A stretch of 64,000 nucleotides of DNA from Marinobacter arenosus (lineage in GTDB: Bacteria > Pseudomonadota > Gammaproteobacteria > Pseudomonadales > Oleiphilaceae): contig NZ_JAHVAO010000001.1 in the NCBI RefSeq assembly GCF_019264345.1, positions 2,790,001 through 2,854,000 on the forward strand, written 5' to 3'. Each line of letters opens with the position of its first letter. The stretch's first letter is position 1. A model generated the notes under the pieces. That model saw only the letters and a program-made list of their open reading frames with translations, searched no databases and was not told the DNA's origin. This document shows, one piece after another, positions 8,652 through 61,953 of this stretch. A program made the translations under genes and the position numbers.

Positions 8652-10461
<1,810 letters not shown>

Positions 10462-42066: not shown

Positions 42067-42227
42067 GAGCATCGCCAGTCTTTGATGGAAGTATCAGGAA
42101 AACATAGCACAGCCCGGGCGCAGTGAAATGACGGTGTGGTCAGATCGCGCCCGGCGATTGGTTGTTGATTGATCGATTTAATTTATATAAGGTGAACGCA
42201 TTAACAATAAAGAAAACAGGTCTTGCT

Positions 42228-43184
42228 ATGTTTGGACAAACGCTCGCCGGCAACACTGTATTCAATGGCGCCCATCCGGAAGAGGTGTCCGGCTTTGTGA
42301 ATGACCACATCGGGCATCACCGTCTGGAACTGAAAGGCCAAAGCACGGCGGCGGCCAGCCTCAGTTTCCGTGAATTTGCCGGGTTCGGGCTTTCCCGGAT
42401 CAGTTACGGCAATCCGGTCCGGGTCAAGAGCCCGGAGCTGGATTCGATCTACCATTTTCAGATCGTTACCCGGGGAGAATGCGTGTGGCATCAGTCCGGA
42501 GAGCGGCTTCGGCTGCGCGCTGGCGAGGCGATGATGGTCAACCCCTATGAAAAGATTGACCTGGAGTATTCGGCGGATTGCGAAAAGCTGATCATCAAGG
42601 TGCCGGAGCCGGTTCTGGAATCGGCCCGGTCCGCACGACCGGTCAGGCATGGGGGAGAGAAAGTCCGCTTTGAGCGGACGCCGGTGGATCTGACGTTGTG
42701 TCCCACGTTGGCAAATATCCTGAGTGCGGTCTTCTGTGAGCTGGAGGAGGGTGGGGACGAAGAGGTCGGCCTGGTCTCCCTGCCGTACCGGGAAATCATT
42801 CTGAAGAAGCTGTTGAAGGTGTTTCCGAGCAACTGTGCCAGTGATGACAGCCAGCCGGCTTTTTCGCCCGCGGTGTGCCGGATGGTTCGCTACATCGACC
42901 AGAACCTGAAGCGCAACATCGATGTTGAGGAATTGTCCGCGATTTCCAACATGAGCGTCCGGTCCATCTACAACGCCTTCTCAAAGGGCTTTGCCACCAC
43001 CCCGAAATGCTATGTCAAACAGCGGAAACTGCGGCAGTTAAGAGAGGACCTGCTGGCGGGCCAGTGCCGTAACGTAACGGAGGTTGCCCTGGATTACGGT
43101 TTCAGCCACCTTGGACGGTTCTCGTCCGATTACCGGAAAATGTTCGGGGAGCTGCCTTCGGAGACCCTGCGCATGGCCGGTTAA
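42228..43184 (+). CDS. benR: AraC-family activator, BenR/XylS-like
   Basis: The 318-residue protein is the length of BenR and XylS and shares long stretches of likeness: ISYGNPVRVKSPELDSIYHF, SADCEKLIIKVP and YGFSHLGRFSSDYRKMFGEL resemble XylS segments. The N-terminal half binds an effector (benzoate in BenR), the C-terminal half (about 210-318) has two helix-turn-helices. ATG 42228 fits the family start; the longer frame from 42162 has none. XylS-type operators occur before the porin and ABC-importer genes nearby. The gene converges with the IclR gene, sharing TTAA. Confidence 0.82.
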   Translation: MFGQTLAGNTVFNGAHPEEVSGFVNDHIGHHRLELKGQSTAAASLSFREFAGFGLSRISYGNPVRVKSPELDSIYHFQIVTRGECVWHQSGERLRLRAGEAMMVNPYEKIDLEYSADCEKLIIKVPEPVLESARSARPVRHGGEKVRFERTPVDLTLCPTLANILSAVFCELEEGGDEEVGLVSLPYREIILKKLLKVFPSNCASDDSQPAFSPAVCRMVRYIDQNLKRNIDVEELSAISNMSVRSIYNAFSKGFATTPKCYVKQRKLRQLREDLLAGQCRNVTEVALDYGFSHLGRFSSDYRKMFGELPSETLRMAG

Positions 43185-43990
43185 TTCCCGCCCTGCTCGG
43201 TTTTCTGGTGCCCGCAGATCTGCCGGGTGACCTTGCTGGCGCAGTTTCTGACCTGCTCAAACAGTTCCGAGCCTTCGCTGATGTCGGTGTCCCGCTCGAG
43301 GCCGAGCAGGGTAATGACGGTGACGATGGAACCGTTGAGGTCGTGAACCGGCATGCTCAGTACGTTGATCTCTGGCAGGTAGTCACTGAAAAACGCACAG
43401 TAGCCAGACTTCCTGACGGCTTCGAGGTGGGCCCCCAGCTGTTCCCGCGGGATGTCCTTGCCCTTGTGCTTCGGCAGTGTGGCCGACTGCTTGTAGAACC
43501 GGTCGATGATCTGTCGCCGGCGTTCGTCCGGAAGGCTGGCCAGATAGATCCGGCCGGCGGCGGAATTCAGGGTCGACAGTTCTGCGCCCAGACGCACGTT
43601 GACCGAGATCGGCTGACTCGAGTCCAGCCACTTGATGACCAGCGGGCCGGATCCATTCCAGACCGTGACCGATACGGTCTTGTCGGTGTCCTCGTTGAGC
43701 TGGTCCACGGCCTCGTAGGACAGCTGGATCGGATTGATCCGGCGCAGCGCCGAAATCCCGAGGGTCAGGCTGGAGTTGCCAAGCGTGTACTGGGTCTGGT
43801 TGACCTGATTTATGTAGCCTTCGCGCAACAGACTGACCAGGTATTTGTGGGCCCGGCTGGGTGAGAGATCCAGTGCGCCGGACAATTCCTTCAGCGTCGG
43901 TGGTCGGGACGCGCTGGCAATGTAATTCAGGATGTGCAGACCAATCTCGAGAGATCCTATTCCCTGCCGCTTGGGGCTTTCATCTGTCAT
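43181..43990 (-). CDS. IclR-family transcription regulator
   Basis: The 269-residue protein has an N-terminal winged helix-turn-helix (about 10-75; LKELSGALDLSPSRAHKYL) and a C-terminal effector domain (about 90-265). It differs from PcaR later in the window, so it is a second IclR regulator. It lies after the porin gene on the same strand and may be in its transcript. Effector and targets are unknown; an aromatic or ketoadipate-related compound is likely from context. ATG 43990 chosen because the family core starts soon after. Confidence 0.82.
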   Translation of the reverse strand: MTDESPKRQGIGSLEIGLHILNYIASASRPPTLKELSGALDLSPSRAHKYLVSLLREGYINQVNQTQYTLGNSSLTLGISALRRINPIQLSYEAVDQLNEDTDKTVSVTVWNGSGPLVIKWLDSSQPISVNVRLGAELSTLNSAAGRIYLASLPDERRRQIIDRFYKQSATLPKHKGKDIPREQLGAHLEAVRKSGYCAFFSDYLPEINVLSMPVHDLNGSIVTVITLLGLERDTDISEGSELFEQVRNCASKVTRQICGHQKTEQGGN

Positions 43991-44107
43991 GTAGGCGGTC
44001 GCTATGAAGTGTTTGATCGTTCCGGACGCGGATCGGACACAGGTGCCGGGAAGACGGTCGGCGCCTGTGTCCGCGTGCGGTAAGGGTACCAATTCTGAGT
44101 GCTCAGT

Positions 44108-45106
44108 TCAGAACGAGTATTTCGCCATTACCTCAACCTGCTGACCTTCGGGGATCAGTGGGCCGAAAGCCAGATTGTACTTGCGCCACTCTACCCCAAC
44201 TTCCAGCTCCGGAATAATGTTATGGATCAGGTTGACGCGCGGTGACTCGTAGTCGGTGTCCGCCTGATCATCCACCTCAACCATGGTGTACGCCACATTG
44301 GCGCGCCACTGGTCGTTGAGGACGAACCGGAAGCCGGCGTTGAAGCCGGTCTGGCTGACCGCATCACCATTCTCCACATCGGTGGCCAGGGAACCGCCGA
44401 CACCGACGCCGGTAAAGGCGCCCAGTCCGTCACCATGGTGGGCGTTGAGGGTCAGGCTGTGGCGCCCCAGTTTGATCTCGGAACCGATGGCACCGCCGCC
44501 GACAAAATCGCCGTTGGCCACTTCCCGGCCGCTGGCGGTCAGGATCAGCCGGTGGCCGCCGTCGAAGTTCAGGTTGTAGTTGATGGCCAGGTCCGGCACG
44601 TCCGCGTCGTTGTTGACGGGGTCCTGGGCCGTGATCCGGAAACCGCTGAACTGGTAGCTGGCCAGGGTGGTGCGGAAGTTAAGACCACCCAGCGTACCGC
44701 GAGGCCCGCCCAGGAAATCCAGGTAATCGTTGTAGGCGACGGCCCAGAACTGGCCGGTCCAGGTCTGGCCGACGGTGGCATCGTCCACCTTGATAAAGGC
44801 GTGACGCAGTCTGAGGTCGTTGTTCTCGCCCGGATAGAGCCCACCGTAAAAATCGCCCTCCACAAACCCCACGATGGTGTGGCCCTGTTTCTGGGTGACG
44901 GTCTTGAGGTTGATGCGGCTCTGGTTGGCGCGACCGAAGAAACGGGATTCACCCTGTTCGGGGTCCTCGTAAATGCCTTCCGCTTTCAGGTAGCCACCGA
45001 TGCTGACGCTGGTGTCGTTGTAGGTGCCGAGATCAAAGGCGTAGGTTGGCGTTGCGCTGAGGGTTGAGGCAACCGCCAGCGCCATGAGTGATTTCTGATA
45101 GTTCAT
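44108..45106 (-). CDS. DcaP-type outer membrane porin
   Basis: The 332-residue protein has a signal peptide cleaved near TYA-FDLG (about residue 23), then a beta-barrel with alternating residues and a terminal Phe (VEVMAKYSF), the usual outer membrane insertion signal. Sequence style (SIGGYLKAEGIYED, SRINLKTVT, GFVEGDFYG) fits DcaP-like trimeric porins, which pass dicarboxylates and other organic acids. GGAGAAGG lies before the ATG. It sits between the ABC importer and two regulators and has a BenR/XylS-type promoter, so uptake of benzoate-like acids is the likely job. Confidence 0.85.
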   Translation of the reverse strand: MNYQKSLMALAVASTLSATPTYAFDLGTYNDTSVSIGGYLKAEGIYEDPEQGESRFFGRANQSRINLKTVTQKQGHTIVGFVEGDFYGGLYPGENNDLRLRHAFIKVDDATVGQTWTGQFWAVAYNDYLDFLGGPRGTLGGLNFRTTLASYQFSGFRITAQDPVNNDADVPDLAINYNLNFDGGHRLILTASGREVANGDFVGGGAIGSEIKLGRHSLTLNAHHGDGLGAFTGVGVGGSLATDVENGDAVSQTGFNAGFRFVLNDQWRANVAYTMVEVDDQADTDYESPRVNLIHNIIPELEVGVEWRKYNLAFGPLIPEGQQVEVMAKYSF

Positions 45107-45135: not shown

Positions 45136-45164
45136 ACTATCGGCGATTCAGTGAGGCTCAAATA
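45136..45164 (-). promoter_or_regulatory. Promoter of the porin gene
   Basis: Minus strand -35 TATTTG (45159-45164) shares two bases with the proximal operator repeat; a 17-base spacer leads to -10 GATAGT (45136-45141). Start expected near 45129, some 23 bases before the ATG. A poor -35 that overlaps the activator site is the layout of XylS-dependent Pm. Confidence 0.6.
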
Positions 45165-45201: not shown

Positions 45202-45915
45202 TTAGACGCTGAGCGCGGTTTCGACCGCTTCCAGGTTCCGGTCCAGCTCTTCGGAGCTGCCGTCAAAGTGAACCTTTCCTTTCACAACAACGACATGGCG
45301 GTCGCAGAGCTTTTTCAGGGCCTTGATGTTCTTGTCCACGATCAGGGTCGAAATGCCGGATTCCCGGATGGTGGCGATGACGTTCCAGATGTCCTGGCGG
45401 ATCAGTGGGGCCAGGCCCTCGGTGGCCTCGTCCAGAATCATCAGCCGGGGGTTGGTCACCAGGGCGCGACCGATGGCCAGCATCTGTTGCTCGCCCCCCG
45501 ACAGCTCCGTGCCGAGGTTCGATAACCGTTCCTGGAGGCGGGGAAAGGTCGCCATGACCCGGTCGAAATCCCAGCCGGATTTGCCGTTGCTGTCCGGGCG
45601 GGCGGCCATCTGCAGGTGTTCCTTGACCGTCAGGTTATGAAACATGCCCCGGCCTTCCGGGACATAGGCTATGTCCCGGCGCATCCGTTTCCAGGTGGGC
45701 AGATGGCTGATGTCCTGGCCGTCGAAACAGACCTGGCCGCTGCGCGGCCCGACGATGCCCAGGATCGATTTCAGGGTCGTGGTCTTGCCCATGCCGTTGC
45801 GCCCCATCAGGCTCATGGACTGCCCTTTATCAAGCCGGAACGACAGGTCGTGCAGGATGTGGCTGCGACCGTAGAGCGTGTTGAGGTTCTTCACTTCCAG
45901 AAGGCTGTTGCTCAT
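45202..45915 (-). CDS. livF-like: ABC importer ATPase, LivF type
   Basis: The 237-residue ATPase has Walker A GRNGMGKTT, signature LSGGEQQMLAIGRAL and Walker B MILDEATEGL, all typical of LivF in branched-chain (HAAT) importers. It powers uptake with LivG. Its ATG overlaps the LivG stop by four bases. It is last in the five-gene set binding protein, H, M, G, F. Location inside the benzoate cluster suggests an aromatic or related acid as substrate. Confidence 0.9.
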   Translation of the reverse strand: MSNSLLEVKNLNTLYGRSHILHDLSFRLDKGQSMSLMGRNGMGKTTTLKSILGIVGPRSGQVCFDGQDISHLPTWKRMRRDIAYVPEGRGMFHNLTVKEHLQMAARPDSNGKSGWDFDRVMATFPRLQERLSNLGTELSGGEQQMLAIGRALVTNPRLMILDEATEGLAPLIRQDIWNVIATIRESGISTLIVDKNIKALKKLCDRHVVVVKGKVHFDGSSEELDRNLEAVETALSV

Positions 45916-46679
45916 GCCGCTTCCTCCTCCTCTTCCTTCCCGAGATAGGCCTCTTTGACCTGGGGCTCGTTGCGCACCTGGTCCACGGTGCCGGTGATCA
46001 GATGGGTGCCGTTATCGAGTACGGTCAGCTGGTCGGACAGCTCGAAAATGGCGTCCATATCGTGTTCAACCAGCACAATGCTGTAGGTCTTCTTGAGTTC
46101 GTTCAGCAGCTCGATGATGCGCAGGGATTCCTCGTGGCCCATGCCCGCCATCGGCTCGTCCAGGAGCAGGATGCAGGGATCGGTTGCCAGCACCATCGCG
46201 AGTTCGAGTTGTCGCTGTTCTCCGTAGGAGATTTCAGCGGCAATCGTGTGGATGCGGCGATCAAGGCCCACCTGGCAGAGCGCCTTTTCCGCGGCTTCCC
46301 GGACCAGTTTGTTGGCATGGCGCGAGGCAAACAGGTTGAAACTGCCGGTGAAACGGCGCTGGGCTGCGACCGCACAGTTTTCCAGACAGGTAACCTCGGC
46401 ATAGATATTGGTTTTCTGGAAGCTGCGGCCGATGCCCCGACGCACGAACTTCCAGGGTTTCATGCCGTCGATCCGTTCACCTTTGTGGAAAATGCAGCCA
46501 CTTGTAGGGTTCAGGGTCCCACACAGCATGTTCAGCAAGGTGCTTTTGCCGGCCCCGTTGGGGCCCACCACGCCGTGCAGTTCCCGGTCCCGGAACTGCA
46601 ACGAGATGTTATCGAGTGCCTTGATGCCGCCCCAGTGTTTGCTGAGGGATTCGGTTTCCAGAATGATGTCGTTGGCCAT
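45912..46679 (-). CDS. livG-like: ABC importer ATPase, LivG type
   Basis: The 255-residue ATPase has Walker A GPNGAGKST, a signature loop ISYGEQRQLELAM and Walker B ILLLDEPMAGM. The longer mid-region and the C-terminal extension (Glu-rich tail) fit LivG. It pairs with LivF at the inner membrane. It begins three bases before the LivM stop on the minus strand. Confidence 0.9.
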   Translation of the reverse strand: MANDIILETESLSKHWGGIKALDNISLQFRDRELHGVVGPNGAGKSTLLNMLCGTLNPTSGCIFHKGERIDGMKPWKFVRRGIGRSFQKTNIYAEVTCLENCAVAAQRRFTGSFNLFASRHANKLVREAAEKALCQVGLDRRIHTIAAEISYGEQRQLELAMVLATDPCILLLDEPMAGMGHEESLRIIELLNELKKTYSIVLVEHDMDAIFELSDQLTVLDNGTHLITGTVDQVRNEPQVKEAYLGKEEEEEAA

Positions 46680-46681
46680 GA

Positions 46682-47638
46682 TTATTTCTCCAGCAGTTTT
46701 TCAAGATAACCGGCCAGGCCTTTGCGCAGGAGCAGGACCATGAGGATGATGGCGCCGCCCATAAGCAGCATCCAGTCCTCGCTCATGTGCTCGAAAAGGT
46801 ACTGCAGACCCTCGTAGGTGATGGCGCCCAGAATGGCTCCATAGATAGTGCCGAGGCCGCCGAGGATGGACATCACCAGGGCGGTACCGGACATTTCCCA
46901 GGTCATGAATTGCGGATTCACGTAGCCGTACTGCAGGGCAAACAGCAGACCGGCGTAAGCCGCGAGAGTGCTGCCGATGACGTAGCTGATCAGGCGGAAC
47001 GCAAAGATGTTGTAGCCAAGGGCCTCGGTACGCTCCGGGTTCAGTCGGCTGGCTTCCACGATGCGGCCAAAGCGCGAACGCAGGATGATCTTGATGGCCA
47101 GCAACGTCACCAGGACGGCCAGCAGCGCCAGGTAATAGAAGTGCGAGGGGTTGTCCAGGTTCAGGAAGCTCAGGCCAAAAATGCTGGTCTCCGGCTTCAT
47201 GAAAATGAACAGGCCGTCGTTGCCACCGAACTCCAGGGAATCGAAGAAGAAGTAATAGGCCATCTGGGAGATCGCCAGGGTGATCATGATGAAGTAGATA
47301 CCCGACGTCCGCAGAACCACAACCCCGACGACCAGTGCCGTCAGCGCGCTGACGGCCAGGATGTACAGTGCGTAGATCCAGAAATTTACGGCTTCATACT
47401 CCGGCGTGAGGATCACGAACAGGTAGCCGCCCAGGCCATAGAACAGCGCGTGCCCCAGGGTAACCAGGCCAACCCGCCCCACCAGAAAATCCAGTGACAT
47501 GACGAACACGGCCAGAATCAGAACGGTGGTGGCTTTGCCCACGAAGAAGGAATTGTCCTCCAGGAACAGGGGAAGACACAGGGCGATGACAAAGAAGATC
47601 GCCAGGACGATGCGCTCGGTGCGTTTCTCGAAAATCAT
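46682..47638 (-). CDS. livM-like: ABC importer permease, LivM type
   Basis: The 318-residue permease has about nine helices and the HAAT permease loop SRFGRIVEASRLNPERTEALGYN (shown in part), which contacts the ATPase. It forms the channel with LivH. The gene lies 13 bases after livH. Substrate not readable from the sequence. Confidence 0.9.
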   Translation of the reverse strand: MIFEKRTERIVLAIFFVIALCLPLFLEDNSFFVGKATTVLILAVFVMSLDFLVGRVGLVTLGHALFYGLGGYLFVILTPEYEAVNFWIYALYILAVSALTALVVGVVVLRTSGIYFIMITLAISQMAYYFFFDSLEFGGNDGLFIFMKPETSIFGLSFLNLDNPSHFYYLALLAVLVTLLAIKIILRSRFGRIVEASRLNPERTEALGYNIFAFRLISYVIGSTLAAYAGLLFALQYGYVNPQFMTWEMSGTALVMSILGGLGTIYGAILGAITYEGLQYLFEHMSEDWMLLMGGAIILMVLLLRKGLAGYLEKLLEK

Positions 47639-47651
47639 GTTCGGCTCCCGC

Positions 47652-48515
47652 TTACTTGGCGAACAGGCCCTGGGGCTTCACCAGCAGCACCAGGATCATG
47701 AAGATGTAGATGATCATGTTGGACAGGGTGGGCATCAGTACCGCGGCGAAGGTGCTGATAATGCCGACCATCAGAGCTCCCACGAAGGCGCCCTTGATGG
47801 AGCCCATGCCACCGATCACCACCACCACGAAGCAGGTGATCAGCACGCTCTCGCCCATGCCGGGAACGATGGAACGCATGGGGGCGGCAATGATGCCCGA
47901 CACCGCCGCCAGCATGACGCCGATGGCGAACACGATGGTGTAGAGGCTTTTGATGTTGACGCCCAGGGCCTCGACCATCTCCCGGTTGGACTCACCGGCA
48001 CGGATCAGCATGCCCAGGCGGGTTTTGCTCACGACGAAATAAAGCGCGGCGGCAATGCCAATGCAGACCAGGGCCGCGAAGATGCGGTACACCGGGTAAC
48101 TGGAATTGTCGGTGAAGGGCACCGAGCCGCTCAGGGTCTCGGGCACGGCAACGCCGTACGGATCGTTGCCCCAGAGAATGCTCTGCAGGGAGTTGAAGAC
48201 AAAGATCATGCCGATGGTCAGCAATACCTGGTCCAGGTGATTGCGGTTATAGAGCCGCTGGATCAACACCCTTTCGATCAATATGCCCAGACCGAGCGCG
48301 ATGGCTGCCGAGAGAAGGGCGGATGCGGTGAAGCTGCCGGTCACGGCAACGAAGTACCACACCAGGTAGGCGCCCACCATGTACATGGAACCATGGGCCA
48401 GGTTGAGAATTCCCATCACGCCGAAGACCAGGGTCAGGCCGGAGGCGATCAGAAACAGGAGCAACCCATACTGGATACCATTAATGAGTTGCACGAAGAA
48501 AAGTTCGGTAGACAT
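47652..48515 (-). CDS. livH-like: ABC importer permease, LivH type
   Basis: The 287-residue permease starts MSTELFFVQLINGIQYG, typical of LivH, with about eight helices and the ATPase-contact loop SKTRLGMLIRAGESNREM. ATG 48515 is preferred to a TTG at 48527; neither has a strong ribosome site. An inverted repeat separates it from the binding-protein gene upstream, which probably lets the binding protein be made in excess. Confidence 0.9.
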   Translation of the reverse strand: MSTELFFVQLINGIQYGLLLFLIASGLTLVFGVMGILNLAHGSMYMVGAYLVWYFVAVTGSFTASALLSAAIALGLGILIERVLIQRLYNRNHLDQVLLTIGMIFVFNSLQSILWGNDPYGVAVPETLSGSVPFTDNSSYPVYRIFAALVCIGIAAALYFVVSKTRLGMLIRAGESNREMVEALGVNIKSLYTIVFAIGVMLAAVSGIIAAPMRSIVPGMGESVLITCFVVVVIGGMGSIKGAFVGALMVGIISTFAAVLMPTLSNMIIYIFMILVLLVKPQGLFAK

Positions 48516-48563
48516 AACGATACCCAACGGTTGTACGGATAAGTCAGTTCAGGGGGGAGGGAA

Positions 48564-48600: not shown

Positions 48601-49776
48601 TCAGATCCTGCAGCCGCGGGCCGGATCTTCCAGCGCCTGGGCGGCAACGGTCTGCACCACGTTCACGCCATCTTTCACTTCCCGGAGGTAGATGTTCTGG
48701 ATCGGGTTGTGAGCCTTGGAGAAGGTGAATGCACCGCGCGGGCTGTTGATGGTCAGTTTCTCCATGGTGCTGATCACCGCCTGCTTGTCGGAGATGTCGC
48801 CGCCCAGCTGGTCGATGGTGTCGGCGATGGCCTGACCGGCGTCGTAGCCCTGCACGGCGTAGATGTCGGGGTAGTGGCCGTATTCGGTGTTGAAGGCTTC
48901 ACGGAATTCGTGGTTCTCGGGAATGTCGAGCTGCTCCGCGTAGTGCAGGCCCGTCATGATGCCCTCGGCGGCAGGGCCCTGGGCCTCCAGAGTGCCTTCG
49001 GTCAGGAAGCCGGAACCCAGCAGCGGGATCTTGCCGCGCAGGCCCATGGCGTCGTAATCCTTGGCGAACTTGATGGCTCCACCGCCGGCGAAGAAGGTGA
49101 ACACGGCGTCGGGTTGCTCGTCGGCGATGTCACTGACGTGGGACTGGAAGTTGGTGGATGGGAAGGGCAGCAGCACCTTCTCGACAATTTCACCACCACC
49201 GGCCTCAAAGGATTCGGCGAAGGCATCCAGGCTCTCGCGGCCCATGCCGTAGTTCCAGCTGATGGCGTAGACCTTTTTATAGCCCTTATCGAGAGCGACC
49301 TTGCCCATGGGGTAGGACGGCTGCCAGGACGAGAAGGAGGTCCGGAACACGTTGGGCGAACACAGGGGGCCGGTTGCGGCGGCCGAACCCGCGTTGGGGA
49401 TGATCATGATGGTGTCCTTGCCGCGCAGCATCTTGATCATGCCCATGGCAACACCGGAGTGAACCGGACCGATCACGAAGTCCGCTTTGTGCTGGTTGAG
49501 CAGCGAGGAGGCCAGTTCCGGGGCCCTTGAGGGCTTGGCCTCAGTATCCAGCTCAACGAACTCGATTTCGGCACCGTGCAACTGGTCGACACGTTGTTTC
49601 AGGGCCAGCCTGAGGCCGTCCCGACCGGCCTCACCCAGCTGGGCGTAGATGCCGCTGAACGGCAGCATGACACCGATTTTCACCGGGTCGCCGGCAGCCG
49701 CCGGGGCAGAGGTAGAAAGCCCGGCGGCCAGGGTGGTTGCCAAGGCAGTGCTGGCAAGGGTTTTAATGGGGTTCAT
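48601..49776 (-). CDS. livK-like: ABC importer substrate-binding protein, LivK/HmgA type
   Basis: The 391-residue periplasmic protein has a signal peptide (about 1-28, ending APAAAGD) and two-lobed binding fold (VKIGVMLPFSGIYAQLGEAG). It would catch a ligand and deliver it to LivHM. Proteins of this HAAT family bind amino acids, but also benzoate derivatives and other aromatics. GAGGTGA five bases before supports the ATG. It leads the ABC operon and has its own BenR/XylS-type promoter, which points to an aromatic acid ligand. Confidence 0.9.
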   Translation of the reverse strand: MNPIKTLASTALATTLAAGLSTSAPAAAGDPVKIGVMLPFSGIYAQLGEAGRDGLRLALKQRVDQLHGAEIEFVELDTEAKPSRAPELASSLLNQHKADFVIGPVHSGVAMGMIKMLRGKDTIMIIPNAGSAAATGPLCSPNVFRTSFSSWQPSYPMGKVALDKGYKKVYAISWNYGMGRESLDAFAESFEAGGGEIVEKVLLPFPSTNFQSHVSDIADEQPDAVFTFFAGGGAIKFAKDYDAMGLRGKIPLLGSGFLTEGTLEAQGPAAEGIMTGLHYAEQLDIPENHEFREAFNTEYGHYPDIYAVQGYDAGQAIADTIDQLGGDISDKQAVISTMEKLTINSPRGAFTFSKAHNPIQNIYLREVKDGVNVVQTVAAQALEDPARGCRI

Positions 49777-49811: not shown

Positions 49812-49840
49812 ATTAGAGGCGGGAAGGGGCTTAAGAAATA
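49812..49840 (-). promoter_or_regulatory. Promoter of the ABC importer operon
   Basis: Minus strand -35 TATTTC (49835-49840), 17-base spacer, -10 TCTAAT (49812-49817; five of six consensus). The -35 shares two bases with the proximal operator repeat. Transcript start is expected near 49805, about 28 bases before the ATG. Confidence 0.65.
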
Positions 49841-49874
49841 TCCGTTTTCTGCACAGGCGTGTCCGGTGGTTGCA
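49839..49874 (-). promoter_or_regulatory. BenR/XylS-type operator before ABC importer operon
   Basis: Minus strand repeats TGCAACCACCGGACA and TGCAGAAAACGGATA are spaced by six bases (CGCCTG). The proximal copy matches the XylS half-site TGCA-N6-GGNTA perfectly, the distal one with one mismatch. Copy length, gap and overlap with the -35 match the XylS-controlled Pm promoter. Confidence 0.75.
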
Positions 49875-55516: not shown

Positions 55517-55531
55517 ATACCTCCAGGGTAT
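55517..55531. promoter_or_regulatory. CatM/BenM-type LysR box
   Basis: ATAC-N7-GTAT is an exact match to the CatM/BenM consensus. It lies three bases from the catR start codon and covers the catR ribosome site, so binding could also block catR expression. Confidence 0.6.
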
Positions 55532-55554
55532 CGGTTATTACTTAATCAATATTG

Positions 55555-55586
55555 GTTCACATCCGTGAAACTTCGTACTGTTCGAA
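55555..55586. promoter_or_regulatory. Inverted repeats before catB
   Basis: TTCAC-ATCC-GTGAA (55556-55569) and TTCG-N7-CGAA (55572-55586) stand side by side 35-65 bases before the catB ATG. They may be further LysR sites or an overlapping operator; neither exactly matches the ATAC-N7-GTAT form. Confidence 0.3.
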
Positions 55587-55620
55587 TCACAGGATTTCTA
55601 ACTTGCGATTCGGAGAGCCC

Positions 55621-56742
55621 ATGTCCGCCACCATTCAATCCATCGAAGCGATACTGGTCGATATCCCGACCATCCGCCCTCACAAGCTTTCCATGACAAC
55701 CATGGGGGTTCAGAGCATGGTGATCGTGCGGATGAAGGACTCCGATGGCATCGAGGGACTGGGCGAAGCCACGACCATCGGTGGACTGGCCTACGGTCCG
55801 GAAAGCCCCGAAAGCGTGAAACTTACCATTGATACCTATTTCAAATCGCAACTGATTGGCCAGCCCGCCGGCAACATCAATACCCTGAGGGTAATGTTAA
55901 ACCGCTCGACCCGGGGCAACAACCTGGCCAAGTCGGCCATTGAAACCGCGTTGCTGGATCTTCAGGGCAAGCGCCTGAATCGCCCGGTCTCCGATCTGCT
56001 TGGCGGTTCCGTCCACCAGCACCTTCCGGTGCTCTGGACCCTGGCGAGTGGCGATACCGGCAAGGACATCGAGGAAGCCCTCGGCCTGATCGAAACCCGT
56101 CGTCACTGCGATTTCAAACTGAAGATCGGTTCCCGCGCCCTGATGGACGACGTGCGCCACGTGGCGGCAATCAAGGATGCGGTGGGCGAAAGTGCCAGTG
56201 TCCGGGTGGACGTGAATCAGGCTTGGGACGAGGCCACCGCCGCCAGGGGGATGGCGGAACTGCAGGCCGCAGGCATTGATCTGGTGGAGCAGCCGACACC
56301 GATGAAAGACTACGCCGCCCTGGCGCGCCTGTCGGACAAATTCCATATCCCCATTCTCGCGGACGAAGCCGTCGCAGATGCCAAGGATTTGTACAACCTG
56401 GCCGCAGCCGGCTTTTCCGGCGCCGTCGCCATGAAAATTGCCAAGGCCGGTGGTCCGATTCGCGCCCTGGAGCAGGCAGCGGTCGCCCAGGCCGCCGGTA
56501 TCGGTCTGTATGGCGGCACCATGCTGGAGGGCACCATCGGTTCCGCCGCGTCGCTGCACGCCTGGTCCACCCTCGAAAACCTGCACTGGGGTACCGAGAT
56601 GTTTGGTCCTCTGCTGATGAAAGACGACATCGTGGCCACGCCCCTGAATTTCCATGACAACGGGGTCGACCTGCCAAAAGGCCCGGGCCTGGGCATCGCA
56701 CTCGACGAAGACAAACTGGCCCATTACCGCCGGAAAGCCTGA
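55621..56742 (+). CDS. catB: Muconate cycloisomerase
   Basis: The 373-residue enolase-superfamily enzyme turns cis,cis-muconate into muconolactone. It has the catalytic lysines Lys166 and Lys168 (FKLKIG), and metal ligands Asp198 (RVDVNQAWD), Glu223 (LVEQPTP) and Asp248 (LADEAVA), all at the places known for Pseudomonas CatB. GGAG is five bases before ATG 55621. It leads catBCA, divergent from catR. Confidence 0.93.
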   Translation: MSATIQSIEAILVDIPTIRPHKLSMTTMGVQSMVIVRMKDSDGIEGLGEATTIGGLAYGPESPESVKLTIDTYFKSQLIGQPAGNINTLRVMLNRSTRGNNLAKSAIETALLDLQGKRLNRPVSDLLGGSVHQHLPVLWTLASGDTGKDIEEALGLIETRRHCDFKLKIGSRALMDDVRHVAAIKDAVGESASVRVDVNQAWDEATAARGMAELQAAGIDLVEQPTPMKDYAALARLSDKFHIPILADEAVADAKDLYNLAAAGFSGAVAMKIAKAGGPIRALEQAAVAQAAGIGLYGGTMLEGTIGSAASLHAWSTLENLHWGTEMFGPLLMKDDIVATPLNFHDNGVDLPKGPGLGIALDEDKLAHYRRKA

Positions 56743-56776
56743 GGCACCGGAACGCTCTGAAAACGGAGGAAAGTAC

Positions 56777-57067
56777 ATGCTGTTCAAAGTTGAGATGAAG
56801 GTGAACATCCCCCACGACATGCCCGCCGACGTAGCCGCGGACATCAAGGCCCGGGAGAAAGCCTACGCCCAGGGTCTGCAGGACCAGGGCAAGTGGCGTC
56901 ACCTCTGGCGGGTGGCCGGCAGCTACGCCAACGTCAGCATCTTTGATGTGGAGGACAACGCCGAATTGCAGGAGTTGATCAGCAACCTGCCGCTGTTCCC
57001 CTACATGGATATCACTGTCGCGCCCCTGTGCCGACATCCGTCCTCGATCCATGAGGACGACCGTTAA
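56777..57067 (+). CDS. catC: Muconolactone delta-isomerase
   Basis: The 96-residue enzyme (family length about 96) begins MLFKVEMKVNIPHDMP, a CatC hallmark. It shifts the double bond of muconolactone to give 3-oxoadipate enol-lactone, the PcaD substrate. ACGGAGGAAAG gives a strong ribosome site; a longer frame from 56654 would overlap catB and is rejected. Confidence 0.93.
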   Translation: MLFKVEMKVNIPHDMPADVAADIKAREKAYAQGLQDQGKWRHLWRVAGSYANVSIFDVEDNAELQELISNLPLFPYMDITVAPLCRHPSSIHEDDR

Positions 57068-57136
57068 ACCCAACGCACCGTTGCCAACCGAAGAGCTGTT
57101 TTGAGCAACAACAACAAGAGTACGAGGAGACCAACA

Positions 57137-58078
57137 ATGACCGTTAAAACCATGCAAACTGCGGAAGTGAAGGACCTGCTGGAGAAAGTTGCCGGCTTCA
57201 ACACGGACGGTGGGAACGAACGGGTGAAGAAGATTGTTCACCGGGTTATGCACGATGTTTTTCAGATTATCGAAGACTTTGATGTCACTCCGGATGAATT
57301 CTGGCAAGCCGTGTACTACGTAAACGAACTGGGCCAGAACGGTGAGGCCGCCCTGTTGGCACCGGGCCTGGGTATGGACAAGTACCTGGACATCCGGCTT
57401 GACGCGGAAGATGAGCAGGCAGGCCTGGACGGCGGCACGCCGCGCACCATCGAAGGCCCGCTGTACGTGGCCGGTGCGCCCAAAAGCGACGGTTTCGCCC
57501 GCATGGATGATGGCTCCGATGAGAACGCCGAGACCATGATCCTGACCGGTCAGGTGACTGACGAGAACGGTCACCCTGTTACCAACGCCGTGGTTGACGT
57601 GTGGCACGCGGACACCAAGGGTGCCTACTCCTACTTCGATCAGTCACAGAGCGAGTACAACCTGCGTCGCCGGATCGTCACCGATGAGAATGGCCGTTAC
57701 ACCGCCCGCTCCATCATCCCGTCCGGTTACGGCTGCCCGCCCGAGGGTTCCACCCAGGCGCTGCTGAACCTGTTGGGCCGTCATGGCAACCGTCCGGCGC
57801 ACATCCACTTCTTTATCTCCAAGCCGGGCTTCAAACACCTGACCACCCAGATCAACCTGGCTGGTGATGAGTACACCTACGATGACTTTGCCTTCGCGAC
57901 CCGGGACGAGCTGGTGGTTGACGCCAACCGCATTGAGGACCCCGCCAGGGCCGAGGCATTCGGCCTGAACGCGCCGTTCACCGAGGTGGAGTTCAATATC
58001 CAGCTGGTGTCGACCGACAAGCCGGAGCTCCAGACCCGTCACGAGCGCAAGCGCGCACTGGAGGGTGAGGCGGCCTGA
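57137..58078 (+). CDS. catA: Catechol 1,2-dioxygenase
   Basis: The 313-residue intradiol enzyme opens catechol to cis,cis-muconate using ferric iron. Iron ligands are visible as Tyr164 (GAYSYFD), Tyr198 (PSGYGCPP), His222 and His224 (RPAHIHFF). The N-terminal helical domain (about 1-100) mediates dimer formation. GAGGAG lies about nine bases before ATG 57137. It follows catC by 69 bases and precedes benA by 123, with a hairpin between. Confidence 0.94.
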   Translation: MTVKTMQTAEVKDLLEKVAGFNTDGGNERVKKIVHRVMHDVFQIIEDFDVTPDEFWQAVYYVNELGQNGEAALLAPGLGMDKYLDIRLDAEDEQAGLDGGTPRTIEGPLYVAGAPKSDGFARMDDGSDENAETMILTGQVTDENGHPVTNAVVDVWHADTKGAYSYFDQSQSEYNLRRRIVTDENGRYTARSIIPSGYGCPPEGSTQALLNLLGRHGNRPAHIHFFISKPGFKHLTTQINLAGDEYTYDDFAFATRDELVVDANRIEDPARAEAFGLNAPFTEVEFNIQLVSTDKPELQTRHERKRALEGEAA

Positions 58079-58122
58079 ACGGCCTCTTCCACCGACACCC
58101 AAGGTTCATCGTTTTTGTGATC

Positions 58123-58146
58123 GGCCACCCCGAAAACGGGGTGGCC
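58123..58146 (+). other. Hairpin between catA and benA
   Basis: GGCCACCCCG, AAAA loop, CGGGGTGGCC: a perfect ten-base stem with a tetraloop. No T run follows, so it is more likely an attenuator, partial terminator or RNA-processing point than a full terminator. Confidence 0.6.
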
Positions 58147-58201
58147 CGGGGAGACTCACGCCCGAAACCGGGCATCACAAGAACAAGAGGAGTGAGATGA
58201 C

Positions 58202-59578
58202 ATGAGCAACAAACTTGAACAACTCGCAGACAAGGTCCGCAATGCGGTGGTCGCGGACCCGGAAACCGGTCGCTACCAGTGCGATCGCGGTATCTTCACC
58301 GACCGCGAACTGTTTGACCTGGAAATGAAGTACATCTTCGAAGGCAACTGGGTCTACCTGGCCCACGAGAGTCAGATCCCGAACCCGGGCGACTACTTCA
58401 CAGTGACCGTCGGGCGTCAGCCGGTGATCATCACCCGGACCAAGGCGGGCGATCTGAAAGCCATCCTGAACACCTGCTCCCACCGTGGCGCCACCCTTTG
58501 CCGCAAGAAGCGCGGCAACAAGACCTCGTTCACCTGTCCGTTCCACGGCTGGACCTTCAGCAACGATGGTCGACTGCTGAAAGCGAAGGACCAGAAGAAG
58601 GGCGGCTACCCGGAACAGTTCAACACCGACGGTTCCCACGATCTCAAAGAGATGCCCAAGTTCGGCAATTACCGTGGTTTCCTGTTCGGCAGCCTGAATG
58701 CCGATGTACTGCCCCTGGAGGAGCACCTGGGCGAGACCACCAAGATCATCGACAACATCGTCGACCAGTCCGAGGACGGTCTGGAGATTCTGCGCGGCAG
58801 CTCCACCTACACCTATGAGGGTAACTGGAAACTGACCGCCGAGAATGGCGCCGACGGCTATCACGTCAGCACCGTGCACTGGAACTACCTGTCCACCATG
58901 GGCCAGCGCAACTATGAAAAGGGCGGCACCGAGGCCGTGGACGCCAAGAGCTGGTCGGCCGAAGGCGGTTTCTACTCCTTTGAGAACGGCCACATGATGC
59001 TCTGGACGCGCCTGCTCAACCCTGAGGTTCGTCCGATCTTCAGCCAGCTGGAGCGACTGGAAAAAACCTACGGTGAGGCCCGTGCCGATTCCATCGTCCG
59101 TACCACCAAGAATCTGTGCCTGTATCCGAACGTGTACCTGATGGACCAGTTCTCCACACAGATCCGGGTCACCCGCCCGATCGACGTGAACAAGACCGAG
59201 GTCACCATCTACGCGTTCGGTCCGAAGAACGAGCCGGCTGAGCTGCGCACCAAGCGCATTCGACAGTACGAGGACTTCTTCAACGTGTCCGGCATGGGCA
59301 CACCGGACGACCTGGAGGAATTCCGCGCCTGCCAGAGTGGCTACGAAGCCCGCGACGCGCGCTGGAACGACATGAGCCGGGGCGCCGCTCATTGGATCGA
59401 CGGGCCGGACGACCATGCCAACCAGCTGGACATGAAGCCGACCATGAGTGGCTCCAAGCCCGAAGACGAAGGCCTGTACGTGAACCATCACAAGCACTGG
59501 CAGGACGAGATGATCCGTGCCATTGATGCCGAGCGTGCCCGTTTCATCCCCGTGACCGAAGAGGAGGCGTCCGCATGA
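58202..59578 (+). CDS. benA: Benzoate 1,2-dioxygenase large subunit
   Basis: The 458-residue oxygenase subunit binds a Rieske 2Fe-2S cluster through Cys92, His94, Cys112 and His115 ([17 protein letters not shown]). Mononuclear iron sits in the later motif [13 protein letters not shown]. With BenB and BenC it adds two oxygen atoms to benzoate, giving the 1,2-cis-diol. GAGGAG upstream supports the ATG. First of benABCD. Confidence 0.94.
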
Positions 59579-60066
59579 GCCTTAGCTACCACGATATCGA
59601 GCAGTTCATCCTCCGTGAGGCCCGCTACCTGGACGATCGCGACTGGGACCGCTGGCTGGAGTGTTACCACGAGGACGTCACCTACTGGATGCCGGCCTGG
59701 GATGACAATGACGAGCTGACCGAGGATCCGCAAAGCGAGATCTCGCTCATCTATTACCCCAGCAAGGATGGTCTTGAGGATCGGGTCTACCGACTGAAGA
59801 CGGAGCGCTCCGGCGCCAGTTCCCTGCCGGAACCGCGTACCAATCACTTCATCAGCGGCCTGGAAATTCTGTCCCAGGACGACAACGAAGTGCAGCTCCG
59901 GTTCAACTGGCTGACCAAGTCCTACCGGTACCAGAAAACCCAGGAATACTACGGAACGTCTTTCTACACCCTGGATGTGCGTGGCGGCGAGCCACTGATC
60001 CGGTTCAAGAAAATCGTTCTGACCAACGATTGCATCAATCAGGTGGTGGACGTTTACCACCTGTAA
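59575..60066 (+). CDS. benB: Benzoate 1,2-dioxygenase small subunit
   Basis: The 163-residue beta subunit ([30 protein letters not shown]) has the NTF2-like fold of ring-hydroxylating oxygenase small subunits and gives structure to the alpha3beta3 enzyme. It overlaps benA by four bases (ATGA). Length is typical. Confidence 0.93.
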
Positions 60067-60086
60067 TTGATGGGGAGAGCAGCATC

Positions 60087-61115
60087 ATGAGTTACAACAT
60101 CGCACTGAACTTTGAAGACGGCGTTACCCGGTTTGTCTCCTGCAACGAGGGCGAGACGGTTCTGGATGCCGCCTACCGTGCGCAGATCAATCTGCCCATG
60201 GACTGTTCCGATGGCGTCTGCGGCACCTGCAAGGGTGCCTGCCATCAGGGCAACTTCGACCTGGGGGACGAATACATCGACGAGGCGCTGTCCGACGAGG
60301 AACTCGAGCAGGGCATGATCCTGACCTGCCAGATGGTGCCCTCCAGCGATTGCGTGGTCGAAGTCCCGGTGGCGTCCACCCTGTGCAAGACCGGCAATGC
60401 CGAAGTCACCGGCACGGTGGCCGAGGTGAACCTGATTTCGCCCACGTCCATCGAGCTGAAAATTACCTCGGACGACGACATCGCGTTCCTGCCCGGGCAG
60501 TACGTGAATATCCAGGTGCCGGGTACGGATCAGACCCGCGCCTATTCCTTCAGCTCCAAACCCGGCAGCCGGGATCTGAGCTTCCTGATCCGGAACGTGC
60601 CGGGCGGGTTGATGAGCTCCTGGCTGGTGGGCAAGGCCCGCACCGGTGACAAGGTCACCCTGACCGGCCCGATGGGCAGTTTCTACCTGCGCCCCATCGA
60701 GCGACCGGTCCTGATGTTGGCAGGCGGTACCGGCCTGGCGCCGTTCCTGGCCAAGCTGGAACACATGAAGGCCAATGGTTGTGACCTGCCAGCGCACCTG
60801 GTGTATGGCGTGAGCAACGAGGATGACCTGGTGTGCCTGGATATCCTCGACCGCTTTGCCGGGGAGTTGGACAACTTCAGTTATGTCACCTGTGTCTCCA
60901 GCGACGACAGCGATCATCCGCGCAAGGGCTATGTCACCCATCACATGGACCAGGCCCCGCTGAACGACGGCGATGTGGACGTCTATCTGTGCGGGCCGCC
61001 ACCGATGGTGGATTCGGTGCTTGGATTCTTCCGGGAGAAAGGCATCCAGCCGAACTCGTTCCACTACGAGAAGTTCACCCCGAGTGCGCCGGCCGCCGAG
61101 GAGAAGGTCGCATGA
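60087..61115 (+). CDS. benC: Benzoate dioxygenase reductase
   Basis: The 342-residue electron-transfer protein has an N-terminal plant-type 2Fe-2S domain (CSDGVCGTCKGAC, later LTC), an FAD domain (RAYSFSS) and an NADH domain (LAGGTGLAPF; YLCGPPPMV). It passes electrons from NADH to BenAB. ATG 60087 with GGGGAGAGC before is chosen over 60030, which would overlap benB. Confidence 0.93.
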   Translation: MSYNIALNFEDGVTRFVSCNEGETVLDAAYRAQINLPMDCSDGVCGTCKGACHQGNFDLGDEYIDEALSDEELEQGMILTCQMVPSSDCVVEVPVASTLCKTGNAEVTGTVAEVNLISPTSIELKITSDDDIAFLPGQYVNIQVPGTDQTRAYSFSSKPGSRDLSFLIRNVPGGLMSSWLVGKARTGDKVTLTGPMGSFYLRPIERPVLMLAGGTGLAPFLAKLEHMKANGCDLPAHLVYGVSNEDDLVCLDILDRFAGELDNFSYVTCVSSDDSDHPRKGYVTHHMDQAPLNDGDVDVYLCGPPPMVDSVLGFFREKGIQPNSFHYEKFTPSAPAAEEKVA

Positions 61116-61891
61116 AAGCGCGATTCACGGACAAGGTGATGGTGATCACCGGCGCGGCCCAGGGCATTGGCAAGCGCGTTGCCGAGCTGGCCGCCGCCGA
61201 GGGCGCGCGGCTGCTGGTGGTGGACATTGCGGACTACGTCCAGGGTGTGGCGGCGGAGCTTCGTGATCAGGGCGCGGACACCGTGGCGGTCCAGGCCAAC
61301 CTGGAAACCTGGGCCGGCGCCGAAACCGTCATGGCGGAGGCCCACAAGCATTTCGGCCGCATCGACATCCTGATCAATAACGTCGGCGGAACGATCTGGG
61401 CCCAGCCTTTCGAGCATTACACGCCGGAGCAGATCGAAAAGGAAATCCAGCGCTCGCTGTTCACCACCCTGTGGAGCTGTCGCGCCGTGCTGCCCTACAT
61501 GCTGGAGCAGAAAGGCGGGGTAATCGTGAACGTGTCGTCGGTGGCAACCCGGGGGCTGATGCGAGTGCCCTACGGCGCAGCCAAGGGCGGCGTCAATGCC
61601 ATGACCGTGAACATGGCGTATGAGTATGCCGGCCACAACATCCGGGTGAATGCTGCGGCACCGGGCGGTACCGAGGCGCCACCGCGTCTGACACCGCGCA
61701 ATGCCAGCGAGCAGAGCGACCAGGAAAAGGCGTGGTACCAGACGCTGGTCGACCAGACCACGGAAAACAGCTTCATGCACCGTTACGGAACCCTGGACGA
61801 ACAGGCCGAACCGATTCTGTTTCTGGCATCAGACGCCTCGTCCTACATGACCGGGACCGTCCTGCCGGTGGCAGGCGGGGACCTGGGCTAG
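61112..61891 (+). CDS. benD: Benzoate diol dehydrogenase
   Basis: The 259-residue short-chain dehydrogenase has the NAD motif TGAAQGIG at 13-20, NNVGG and the catalytic Ser, Tyr and Lys in NVSSVATRG and PYGAAKGG. It oxidises the cis-diol from BenABC to catechol with loss of carbon dioxide. Overlaps benC by four bases; GAGGAGAAGG lies before it. Confidence 0.92.
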   Translation: MKARFTDKVMVITGAAQGIGKRVAELAAAEGARLLVVDIADYVQGVAAELRDQGADTVAVQANLETWAGAETVMAEAHKHFGRIDILINNVGGTIWAQPFEHYTPEQIEKEIQRSLFTTLWSCRAVLPYMLEQKGGVIVNVSSVATRGLMRVPYGAAKGGVNAMTVNMAYEYAGHNIRVNAAAPGGTEAPPRLTPRNASEQSDQEKAWYQTLVDQTTENSFMHRYGTLDEQAEPILFLASDASSYMTGTVLPVAGGDLG

Positions 61892-61953
61892 AACCGCCCG
61901 GATCAACCCATTCCATTAACTCCGCACAAGAACAACAGCGGGAGTGAGAGATC

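What the first reader, a model, noticed from the sequence alone, without database searches (positions are those of the whole stretch)
49812..49874. BenR/XylS-type operator and promoter drive an ABC importer inside a benzoate cluster
Two 15-base repeats spaced by exactly six bases lie on the minus strand before the binding-protein gene. The proximal repeat fits TGCA-N6-GGNTA perfectly, overlaps the -35 by two bases, and is followed by a 17-base spacer and TCTAAT. This copies the layout known for XylS at Pm. A BenR/XylS-like gene lies 7 kb away. I know of no described BenR control of a branched-chain-type ABC importer, so aromatic acid uptake by this system under BenR would be new.
Basis: partly seen in the sequence, partly recalled or inferred. 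Interest (0 to 1): 0.82.

Follow-up and report, generated by a model that had tools for sequence, protein, structure and literature searches.

The report
XylS-type switch for benzoate uptake genes
In a marine bacterium and many of its relatives, a conserved DNA switch of the kind known from toluate and benzoate degradation sits in front of the genes for an aromatic-acid import pump and for an outer-membrane channel, so uptake is probably turned on by its own benzoate sensor, separately from the breakdown enzymes.

Summary
Two 15-base repeats (49839-49874, minus strand) fit the XylS/BenR consensus with one mismatch, and TCTAAT lies exactly as far behind them as the -10 of the TOL promoter Pm. 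All 23 close orthologues of the binding-protein gene found in 120 genus genomes carry an operator. Of 80 named loci, 31 have it, 14 of them outside Marinobacter; an AraC relative lies in 25 of those 31 loci and in 0 of the other 49. The nearby gene 42228-43184 is the genome's only full-length XylS/BenR relative found. The binding protein resembles benzoate-binding HbaE. The cat-ben operon carries a CatM/BenM-type site and no XylS-type repeats. Best reading: a XylS/BenR-like activator drives benzoate uptake (importer, porin), while a LysR regulator drives catabolism. No experiment has been done.

The parts
49860..49874 (-). distal operator half-site TGCAACCACCGGACA (one mismatch; GGACA deviation conserved across genera)
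49839..49853 (-). proximal operator half-site TGCAGAAAACGGATA (perfect; 0.97 mean pairwise identity in 18 Marinobacter loci)
49835..49840 (-). -35 position (TATTTC, a poor match to TTGACA by eye; overlaps the operator by two bases), as expected for an activator-dependent promoter
   Evidence: read from sequence
49812..49817 (-). -10 element TCTAAT, starting 22 nt after the operator as in Pm; identical in all 20 main-clade Marinobacter sites listed
48601..49776 (-). periplasmic binding protein (Peripla_BP_6), HbaE-like
47652..48527 (-). ABC permease, LivH type
46682..47638 (-). ABC permease, LivM type
45912..46679 (-). ABC ATPase, LivG type
45202..45915 (-). ABC ATPase, LivF type
45136..45141 (-). 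GATAGT, -10-like, at the same 22-nt offset behind the second operator
44108..45106 (-). outer-membrane porin (some relatives are named porin or carry the DcaP domain; C-terminal Phe)
43181..44092 (-). IclR-family regulator, downstream of the porin gene
42228..43184 (+). XylS/BenR-like AraC-family regulator (318 aa; likely start M23 of the listed ORF 42162-43184, since some relatives have a stop just before it)
55517..55531 (+). CatM/BenM-type site ATACCTCCAGGGTAT before catB (contrast: catabolic operon is not under the XylS-type operator)
   Evidence: consensus from PMC6449761
54612..55514 (-). LysR regulator, CatM/BenM-like (below the curated cut-offs), divergent from cat-ben
55552..63303 (+). 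catB-catC-catA-benABCD and aromatic-acid MFS transporter gene (catB, benA and the MFS gene tested with family models; the other names from order and sequence, mine)

Best explanation
The site is a XylS/BenR-type, activator-dependent promoter. The XylS/BenR-like protein encoded at 42228-43184, once bound to benzoate or a close derivative, binds the tandem repeats as two monomers, overlaps the poor -35, and recruits RNA polymerase to TCTAAT, switching on the importer operon (48601-49776 down to 45202). A second, weaker-looking operator of the same design drives the porin gene and probably the iclR gene behind it. Together this is an uptake regulon (outer-membrane porin plus periplasmic-binding-protein ABC importer). 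The catabolic cat-ben operon next door is switched by the divergent CatM/BenM-like LysR protein. Shown here: sequence, position, rarity and conservation of the operators, operator to -10 distance, and co-occurrence of operator and regulator. Inferred: binding, activation, inducer, transported ligand.
For: Own genome: 2 pairs at <=2 mismatches in 4.1 Mb, both in this cluster, control 0. Footprint in 18 Marinobacter loci: mean pairwise identity 0.33 in the 60 bases upstream, 0.84 distal repeat, 0.97 proximal repeat, 0.62 spacer, 1.00 -10 region; in 11 loci of other genera 0.30 and 0.29 upstream, 0.78, 0.75 and 0.87. All 23 close orthologue copies, in 22 genomes, carry a pair (19 with 6-base gap and one mismatch, 4 with 5-base gap and none). 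Operator to -10 distance equals that of Pm on pWW0 at the importer and porin promoters. Regulator found (E <= 1e-30) in 22 of 22 genus genomes with the importer and 2 of 98 without. In 80 named loci: operator in 31, of which 25 hold an AraC relative in the locus; 49 without operator, of which 0 do; 15 of the 31 are the same DNA as genus stretches, so the independent part is 2 Marinobacter and 14 other loci. 8 of 8 tested genomes behind operator-less loci gave no such regulator at E <= 1e-30, 3 of 3 tested operator-bearing ones did. Regulator: one full-length match in the genome, 40% to XylS and BenR, 50% to XylS in the DNA-binding domain. Ligand: binding protein matches 4evq at 337.7 bits, against 65-68 bits for chains such as 3n0x, 3td9 and 3hut; HbaE (RPA0668) binds benzoate and 4-hydroxybenzoate (PMC3223731 passages). 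In Marinobacterium, Marinomonas and Parathalassolituus the same operator type also precedes benA or ridA-benE.
Against: No transcript, binding or growth data. The distal half-site deviates (GGACA) and the porin site has two mismatches. Position 299 (XylS numbering; recalled as a DNA contact) is Ser, not Glu. In the second Marinobacter clade the -10-like hexamer sits at the Pm offset in 3 of 5 sites and one base further in 2. Several relatives lack the porin gene or hold a partial one. In 6 of 31 operator-bearing named loci the regulator is not within the fetched DNA; 4 of these match genus genomes where it was found elsewhere, one (L084) has it elsewhere, L067 was not tested. 7 of the 22 importer genomes were listed with stop codons inside a regulator match; in 4 checked (G091, G096, G103, G113) there is none after residue 22, G054, G106 and G068 were not checked, and in G068 the gene lies split on two contigs. 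An iclR gene lies in 16 of the 23 stretches, so a second regulator is possible.
Confidence: 0.87

Rival explanations
1. The operator is genuine and bound by the XylS/BenR-like protein, but the inducer and cargo are another aromatic acid (toluate, salicylate, 4-hydroxybenzoate or an algal/lignin aromatic), not mainly benzoate.
For: Many benzoic acid derivatives induce XylS/Pm (PMC5481539 passages); HbaE binds benzoate, 4-hydroxybenzoate, salicylate and benzaldehyde; one clade-2 copy lies beside a dioxygenase only 57% like BenA (L055); in Marinobacterium an operator precedes an extradiol-dioxygenase-like gene (L075).
Against: In the window and many relatives the cluster is benABCD-catABC-pca, i.e. 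benzoate to the beta-ketoadipate route; in Parathalassolituus a benE gene has the operator.
Confidence: 0.25
2. The IclR-family protein encoded at 43181-44092 is the main regulator of the importer; the AraC-type protein is secondary.
For: iclR lies beside the importer in 16 of 23 stretches, and also in Alteromonas L093, which has neither the operator nor, at E <= 1e-30, the AraC-type gene; IclR control of paralogous benzoate importers in Polaromonas is suspected (PMC6449761).
Against: The conserved element is a tandem repeat of the XylS type, tied to the AraC-type gene, at fixed distance from the -10; upstream of it identity falls to 0.33. In one genome lacking the porin (L045; L066 is the same DNA) the second operator stands directly before iclR, so iclR looks like a target.
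Confidence: 0.08
3. The repeats are a chance match and the conservation reflects an ordinary sigma-70 promoter.
For: One half-site per window is expected by chance; 17 of 43 pairs in the genus scan look like scattered background.
Against: Pair rarity, footprint, presence at several non-homologous promoters of one pathway, and absence in 840 kb around operator-less importers (0 pairs).
Confidence: 0.02

Closest known systems
XylS/Pm of TOL plasmid pWW0 (Pseudomonas putida)
   Same: two 15-base TGCA-N6-GGNTA repeats with 6-base gap, -35 overlap, -10 starting 22 nt after the proximal repeat (which hexamer is the -10 of Pm is recalled)
   Different: target is an ABC importer, not the meta-cleavage operon; distal half-site is imperfect; regulator only 40% identical
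BenR of Pseudomonas (ben gene activation)
   Same: same consensus (PMC6449761 passages), AraC/XylS-type regulator, benzoate setting
   Different: here the ben genes lack the operator; the regulator lies outside the Pseudomonas XylS+BenR group
Predicted BenR control of a benzoate ABC transporter in Dechloromonas aromatica RCB and Thauera sp. MZ1T
   Same: BenR site upstream of an operon that includes a benzoate ABC transporter (PMC6449761)
   Different: there the transporter is part of a catabolic operon, divergent from BenR-controlled benABCD; here it has its own promoter, with a porin promoter as second target and catabolism under a LysR-type site. I did not compare the sequences
HbaEFGHI importer of Rhodopseudomonas palustris
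   Same: binding protein closest to 4evq among solved structures (that 4evq is HbaE is recalled)
   Different: lies between the bad and hba operons for anaerobic degradation (PMC3223731 passages); its regulation was not looked up
BenM/CatM control of ben/cat genes (Acinetobacter baylyi)
   Same: divergent LysR gene and ATACC-N5-GGTAT site before catB
   Different: as far as I recall no XylS/BenR-type regulator works beside it there

Membership tests
XylS/BenR-type operator-promoter | two direct repeats TGCA-N6-GGNTA spaced by 6 bases | tested here: met
   one mismatch
XylS/BenR-type operator-promoter | proximal repeat overlaps -35, -10 at the distance found in Pm | tested here: met
XylS/BenR-type operator-promoter | conservation in relatives beyond flanks | tested here: met
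XylS/BenR-type operator-promoter | activation by the regulator with benzoate | not testable with these tools
   needs expression and binding assays
AraC/XylS family regulator of the XylS/BenR subgroup | AraC_binding_2 domain plus HTH_18 | tested here: met
   PF14525 and PF12833
AraC/XylS family regulator of the XylS/BenR subgroup | groups with XylS/BenR rather than other AraC proteins | tested here: inconclusive
   far closer to XylS/BenR than to the two outgroups used, but in a separate group, several deep forks weakly supported
AraC/XylS family regulator of the XylS/BenR subgroup | XylS DNA-contact residues R242, N246, R296, E299 (recalled; no paper on them was read) | tested here: inconclusive
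   R242, N246, R296 kept, E299 is Ser; BenR P0224 itself has V at 246
BenR proper | activates the ben operon | tested here: not met
   no 6-base-gap pair within 350 bases before catB (<=4 mismatches) or benA (<=5) in the window, no 5-base-gap pair at <=2; a CatM/BenM-type site instead
HbaE-type aromatic-acid ABC importer | binding protein related to HbaE, LivHMGF-type partners | tested here: met
HbaE-type aromatic-acid ABC importer | binds benzoate | not testable with these tools
   ligand screen needed

The most novel reading that the evidence does not exclude
In marine Gammaproteobacteria a XylS/BenR-like activator heads a dedicated aromatic-acid acquisition regulon (ABC importer, outer-membrane porin and, in many Marinobacter, a short chemotaxis-type signalling protein). 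In Marinobacter it has lost, or never had, the ben genes, which are run by a CatM/BenM-type LysR regulator; in Marinobacterium and Marinomonas the same regulator type still covers benA. This would be a clean case of one stimulus read by two regulators, one for uptake and one for breakdown, with conserved imperfect half-sites setting promoter strength.
Probability: 0.6. Interest if true: 0.6.

Novelty: new variant of a known kind. Interest (0 to 1): 0.5.

Why it matters
It ties a group of importers that sequence models class nearest to branched-chain amino acid or urea systems to aromatic-acid uptake in marine bacteria, gives a testable regulon, and offers new Pm-like promoters with natural variants in spacing (5 or 6 bases) and half-site quality.

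Tried and rejected
Chance match: rejected by genome-wide rarity, reversed-pattern controls and footprinting. The idea that the same regulator also drives cat-ben or pca here: no 6-base-gap pair before catB, pcaI, pcaD or the AraC-type gene at <=4 mismatches or benA at <=5 in the window; in relatives one 4-mismatch candidate each before the AraC gene in L054 and L055 and a 5-mismatch one before benA in L059, and a 5-base-gap 2-mismatch one before benA of L055. 5-base-gap pairs were tested only to 2 mismatches: one in the own genome, far away. Other XylS-like proteins in the own genome: four further hits, all only in the HTH. Porin fold: the AlphaFold model had mean pLDDT 33.9, so it was not used and no fold search was run; the porin name rests on some relatives' names, a sub-threshold DcaP match and DcaP domains in some relatives. 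Rows dropped: L060 (29% identical paralogue, no operator) from footprints; L038 (near-identical to the window); truncated L055 and L085 regulators from the tree (P0094 and P0085 were added). Only 80 of 113 confirmed named loci were returned.

Full report
What is there. On the minus strand before the binding-protein gene 48601-49776 lie TGCAACCACCGGACA, six bases, and TGCAGAAAACGGATA, then TATTTC (sharing two bases), 17 bases, and TCTAAT. The coordinates and arithmetic of the finding are right. The gene order is AraC-type regulator (+), iclR, porin, livF, livG, livM, livH, binding protein (all -), pcaD, pcaF, pcaJ, pcaI (-), pcaR (+), a CatM/BenM-like lysR (-), then catB, catC, catA, benABCD and an MFS aromatic-acid transporter gene (+) (the pcaDFJI, catC, catA and benBCD names are mine, from order and sequence).

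More than chance. A lone half-site is not remarkable (1 in the window, 0.90 expected). The pair is. In the whole genome (4.11 Mb) two pairs exist at up to two mismatches, 4.7 kb apart and both in this cluster; the reversed control gives none. With a 5-base gap there is one two-mismatch pair elsewhere.

Conservation in the genus. Of 120 genus genomes (drawn from a larger group), 22, own included, hold a binding-protein orthologue of at least 73% identity, in 23 copies (in G091 it is read in two pieces). I fetched 23 stretches, 22 with the other orthologue copies and one with a 29% paralogue (L060) that has no operator. Each of the 23 orthologue copies, the window's included, carries an operator: 19 with 6-base gap and one mismatch, 4 of a second clade (L055-L058) with 5-base gap and no mismatch. 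In 18 main-clade loci mean pairwise identity is 0.33 in the 60 bases upstream but 0.84 and 0.97 in the repeats and 1.00 in the -10 region. The porin operator is present at two mismatches in the window and before the porin gene in 13 of the 23 stretches, at three mismatches in L058, and in L045 it stands directly before iclR because the porin gene is missing; L040 (porin fragment) and L057 (full-length porin match) lack it. A genus-wide scan at one mismatch or less gave 43 pairs in 34 of 120 genomes: 19 before the importer, 1 of the same type near a contig end of a 58%-complete genome (G090), 6 before the extra gene described below, 17 that look like background; the control gave 0 (classification mine).

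Beyond the genus. Of 80 named loci with a relative of the binding protein (113 were confirmed, the best 80 returned), 31 have the operator at up to two mismatches within 220 bases before it: 17 Marinobacter, 11 of Marinobacterium, Nitrincola, Marinomonas and Parathalassolituus (L075-L085), and 3 from Alteromonadaceae or an unnamed gammaproteobacterium (L088-L090). These are not all independent of the genus set: 15 of the 17 Marinobacter loci are the same DNA as genus stretches, and L088 and L089 are nearly the same. In 25 of the 31 an AraC relative of at least 38% identity is in the same locus; in none of the 49 others (two of the 49, L112 and L135, have almost no upstream sequence). Eight genomes behind operator-less loci (including Alteromonas L093 and rhizobia with the importer behind benABCD; some are draft or metagenome assemblies) gave no such regulator at E <= 1e-30; three operator-bearing ones did. 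In 840 kb of operator-less loci (L094-L140) no pair was found, in 635 kb of L061-L093 64 pairs (5- or 6-base gap, up to two mismatches; reversed control 1 and 0). So the operator follows the regulator, not the transporter. In the genus the regulator is in 22 of 22 importer genomes and 2 of 98 others (G107 at 49% and G115 at 30% identity). In two importer genomes, G003 and G118, it lies about 13 and 36 kb from the importer rather than beside it.

Promoter geometry. The -10 of Pm (TAGGCT; its identity as the -10 is recalled) begins 22 nt after the proximal repeat on pWW0; TCTAAT before the importer and GATAGT before the porin begin at the same place, as do T[CT]TAAT or TTTAAT in the 11 importer sites of L075-L085. 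In the second Marinobacter clade 3 of 5 sites fit and 2 have the hexamer one base further on. With nine promoter groups weighted equally, T at offset 21 (1.01 bits) and at 27 (0.86 bits) stand out, but so do offsets 1 (1.02) and 42 (0.92); some groups fit poorly, e.g. benA of L143 and the extradiol-dioxygenase group. The literature describes the same half-site structure for Pm and cites the overlap of XylS and polymerase sites (PMC5481539 passages).

The regulator. 42228-43184 (318 aa) has AraC_binding_2 and HTH_18 domains, 40% identity to XylS and to an annotated BenR (P0224), 50% to XylS in the C-terminal domain; residues matching XylS R242, N246, R296 are kept, E299 is Ser (their role is recalled). 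In the tree it sits in a Marinobacter group beside, not inside, the Pseudomonas XylS+BenR group; deep forks are weak. It is the only full-length relative found in the genome; the other four hits cover only the HTH.

The cargo. The binding protein is closest to 4evq/4evr (337.7 bits); next come 4zpj, 4ey3, 4evs and 4f06 at 142-168 bits, and all others listed are at 68 bits or less. The R. palustris protein HbaE (RPA0668) bound benzoate, 4-hydroxybenzoate, salicylate and benzaldehyde in a thermal-shift assay (PMC3223731 passages); that 4evq is RPA0668 is recalled.

The catabolic side. Before catB lies ATACCTCCAGGGTAT, which fits the LysR consensus AkACC-N5-GGTAT (PMC6449761); ATAC-N7-GTAT is met without departure in all 12 loci examined, the window included. 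No XylS-type pair is there. In Marinobacterium and Marinomonas, by contrast, a two-mismatch pair precedes benA in all 7 of the loci L075-L084 in which benA was found, and a 5-base-gap pair points away from the importer in 5 Marinobacterium loci, in L075 towards an extradiol-dioxygenase-like gene (only that one was examined). In Parathalassolituus a perfect pair precedes ridA-benE. So the operator class belongs to benzoate genes generally; in Marinobacter it appears to be kept for uptake.

Literature. PMC6449761 (passages and the second part of section 9 read) predicts BenR control of operons containing a benzoate ABC transporter in D. aromatica RCB and Thauera sp. MZ1T, so the general idea is in print as a prediction. 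I found no paper on this wiring in Marinobacter or relatives among the listings (open-licence library; subscription journals mostly missing). A Marinobacter proteome paper (PMC7822026, passages) reports many branched-chain-type ABC proteins under Corexit and does not mention BenR or AraC.

Verdict. A real, strongly conserved XylS/BenR-type operator-promoter for an aromatic-acid importer, with a second one for the porin. Function is inferred from sequence only.

Noticed in passing
L074:8835-8870 (operator) and 8917-9879 (gene); 12 of the 23 genus stretches, between pcaD and the importer; absent from the window: A further operator (TTCA-N6-GGAYA, 6, TGCA-N6-GGATA) before a 320-aa protein with an MCP signalling domain (domain shown for L074 only; a similar reading frame seen in L062), i.e. 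a possible chemotaxis member of the regulon.
   Followed up: partly
49860-49864 (-) and equivalents: The distal half-site reads GGACA, not GGNTA, in 24 of 25 six-base-gap importer sites of the named loci (counted by eye; L085 is the exception): a conserved imperfection across four genera.
   Followed up: partly
L055-L058, L072, L073, L086, L088-L090, L142, L143: Operators with a 5-base gap and two perfect half-sites (L072, L073, L086 are the same DNA as L056-L058). Marinobacterium loci hold both gap lengths, so one regulator may accept both.
   Followed up: partly
L142 (plasmid of Marinobacter sp. SBY-1): The importer operon with 5-base-gap operator and an AraC-type gene lie together on a plasmid typed as conjugative, among transposase genes.
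   Followed up: no
42182-42197 (+), before the AraC-type gene: A conserved AT-rich stretch TTTATATAARGTGAAC, roughly palindromic, in most of 14 aligned loci; possibly the promoter or the site of the IclR protein.
   Followed up: no
L045:14943-14978 (same DNA as L066:14591-14626): The porin gene is gone, but its operator is kept 51 bases before iclR, without the usual GATAGT.
   Followed up: no
L094-L098, L129: In rhizobia and relatives the same importer type lies behind catBCA-benABCD without operator or, in the three genomes tested (L094, L096, L129), a regulator of this kind.
   Followed up: partly
L059 (G091): The binding-protein gene is read in two overlapping pieces, and livH, pcaI and catB matches are partial, in a draft assembly; perhaps sequencing errors.
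   Followed up: no
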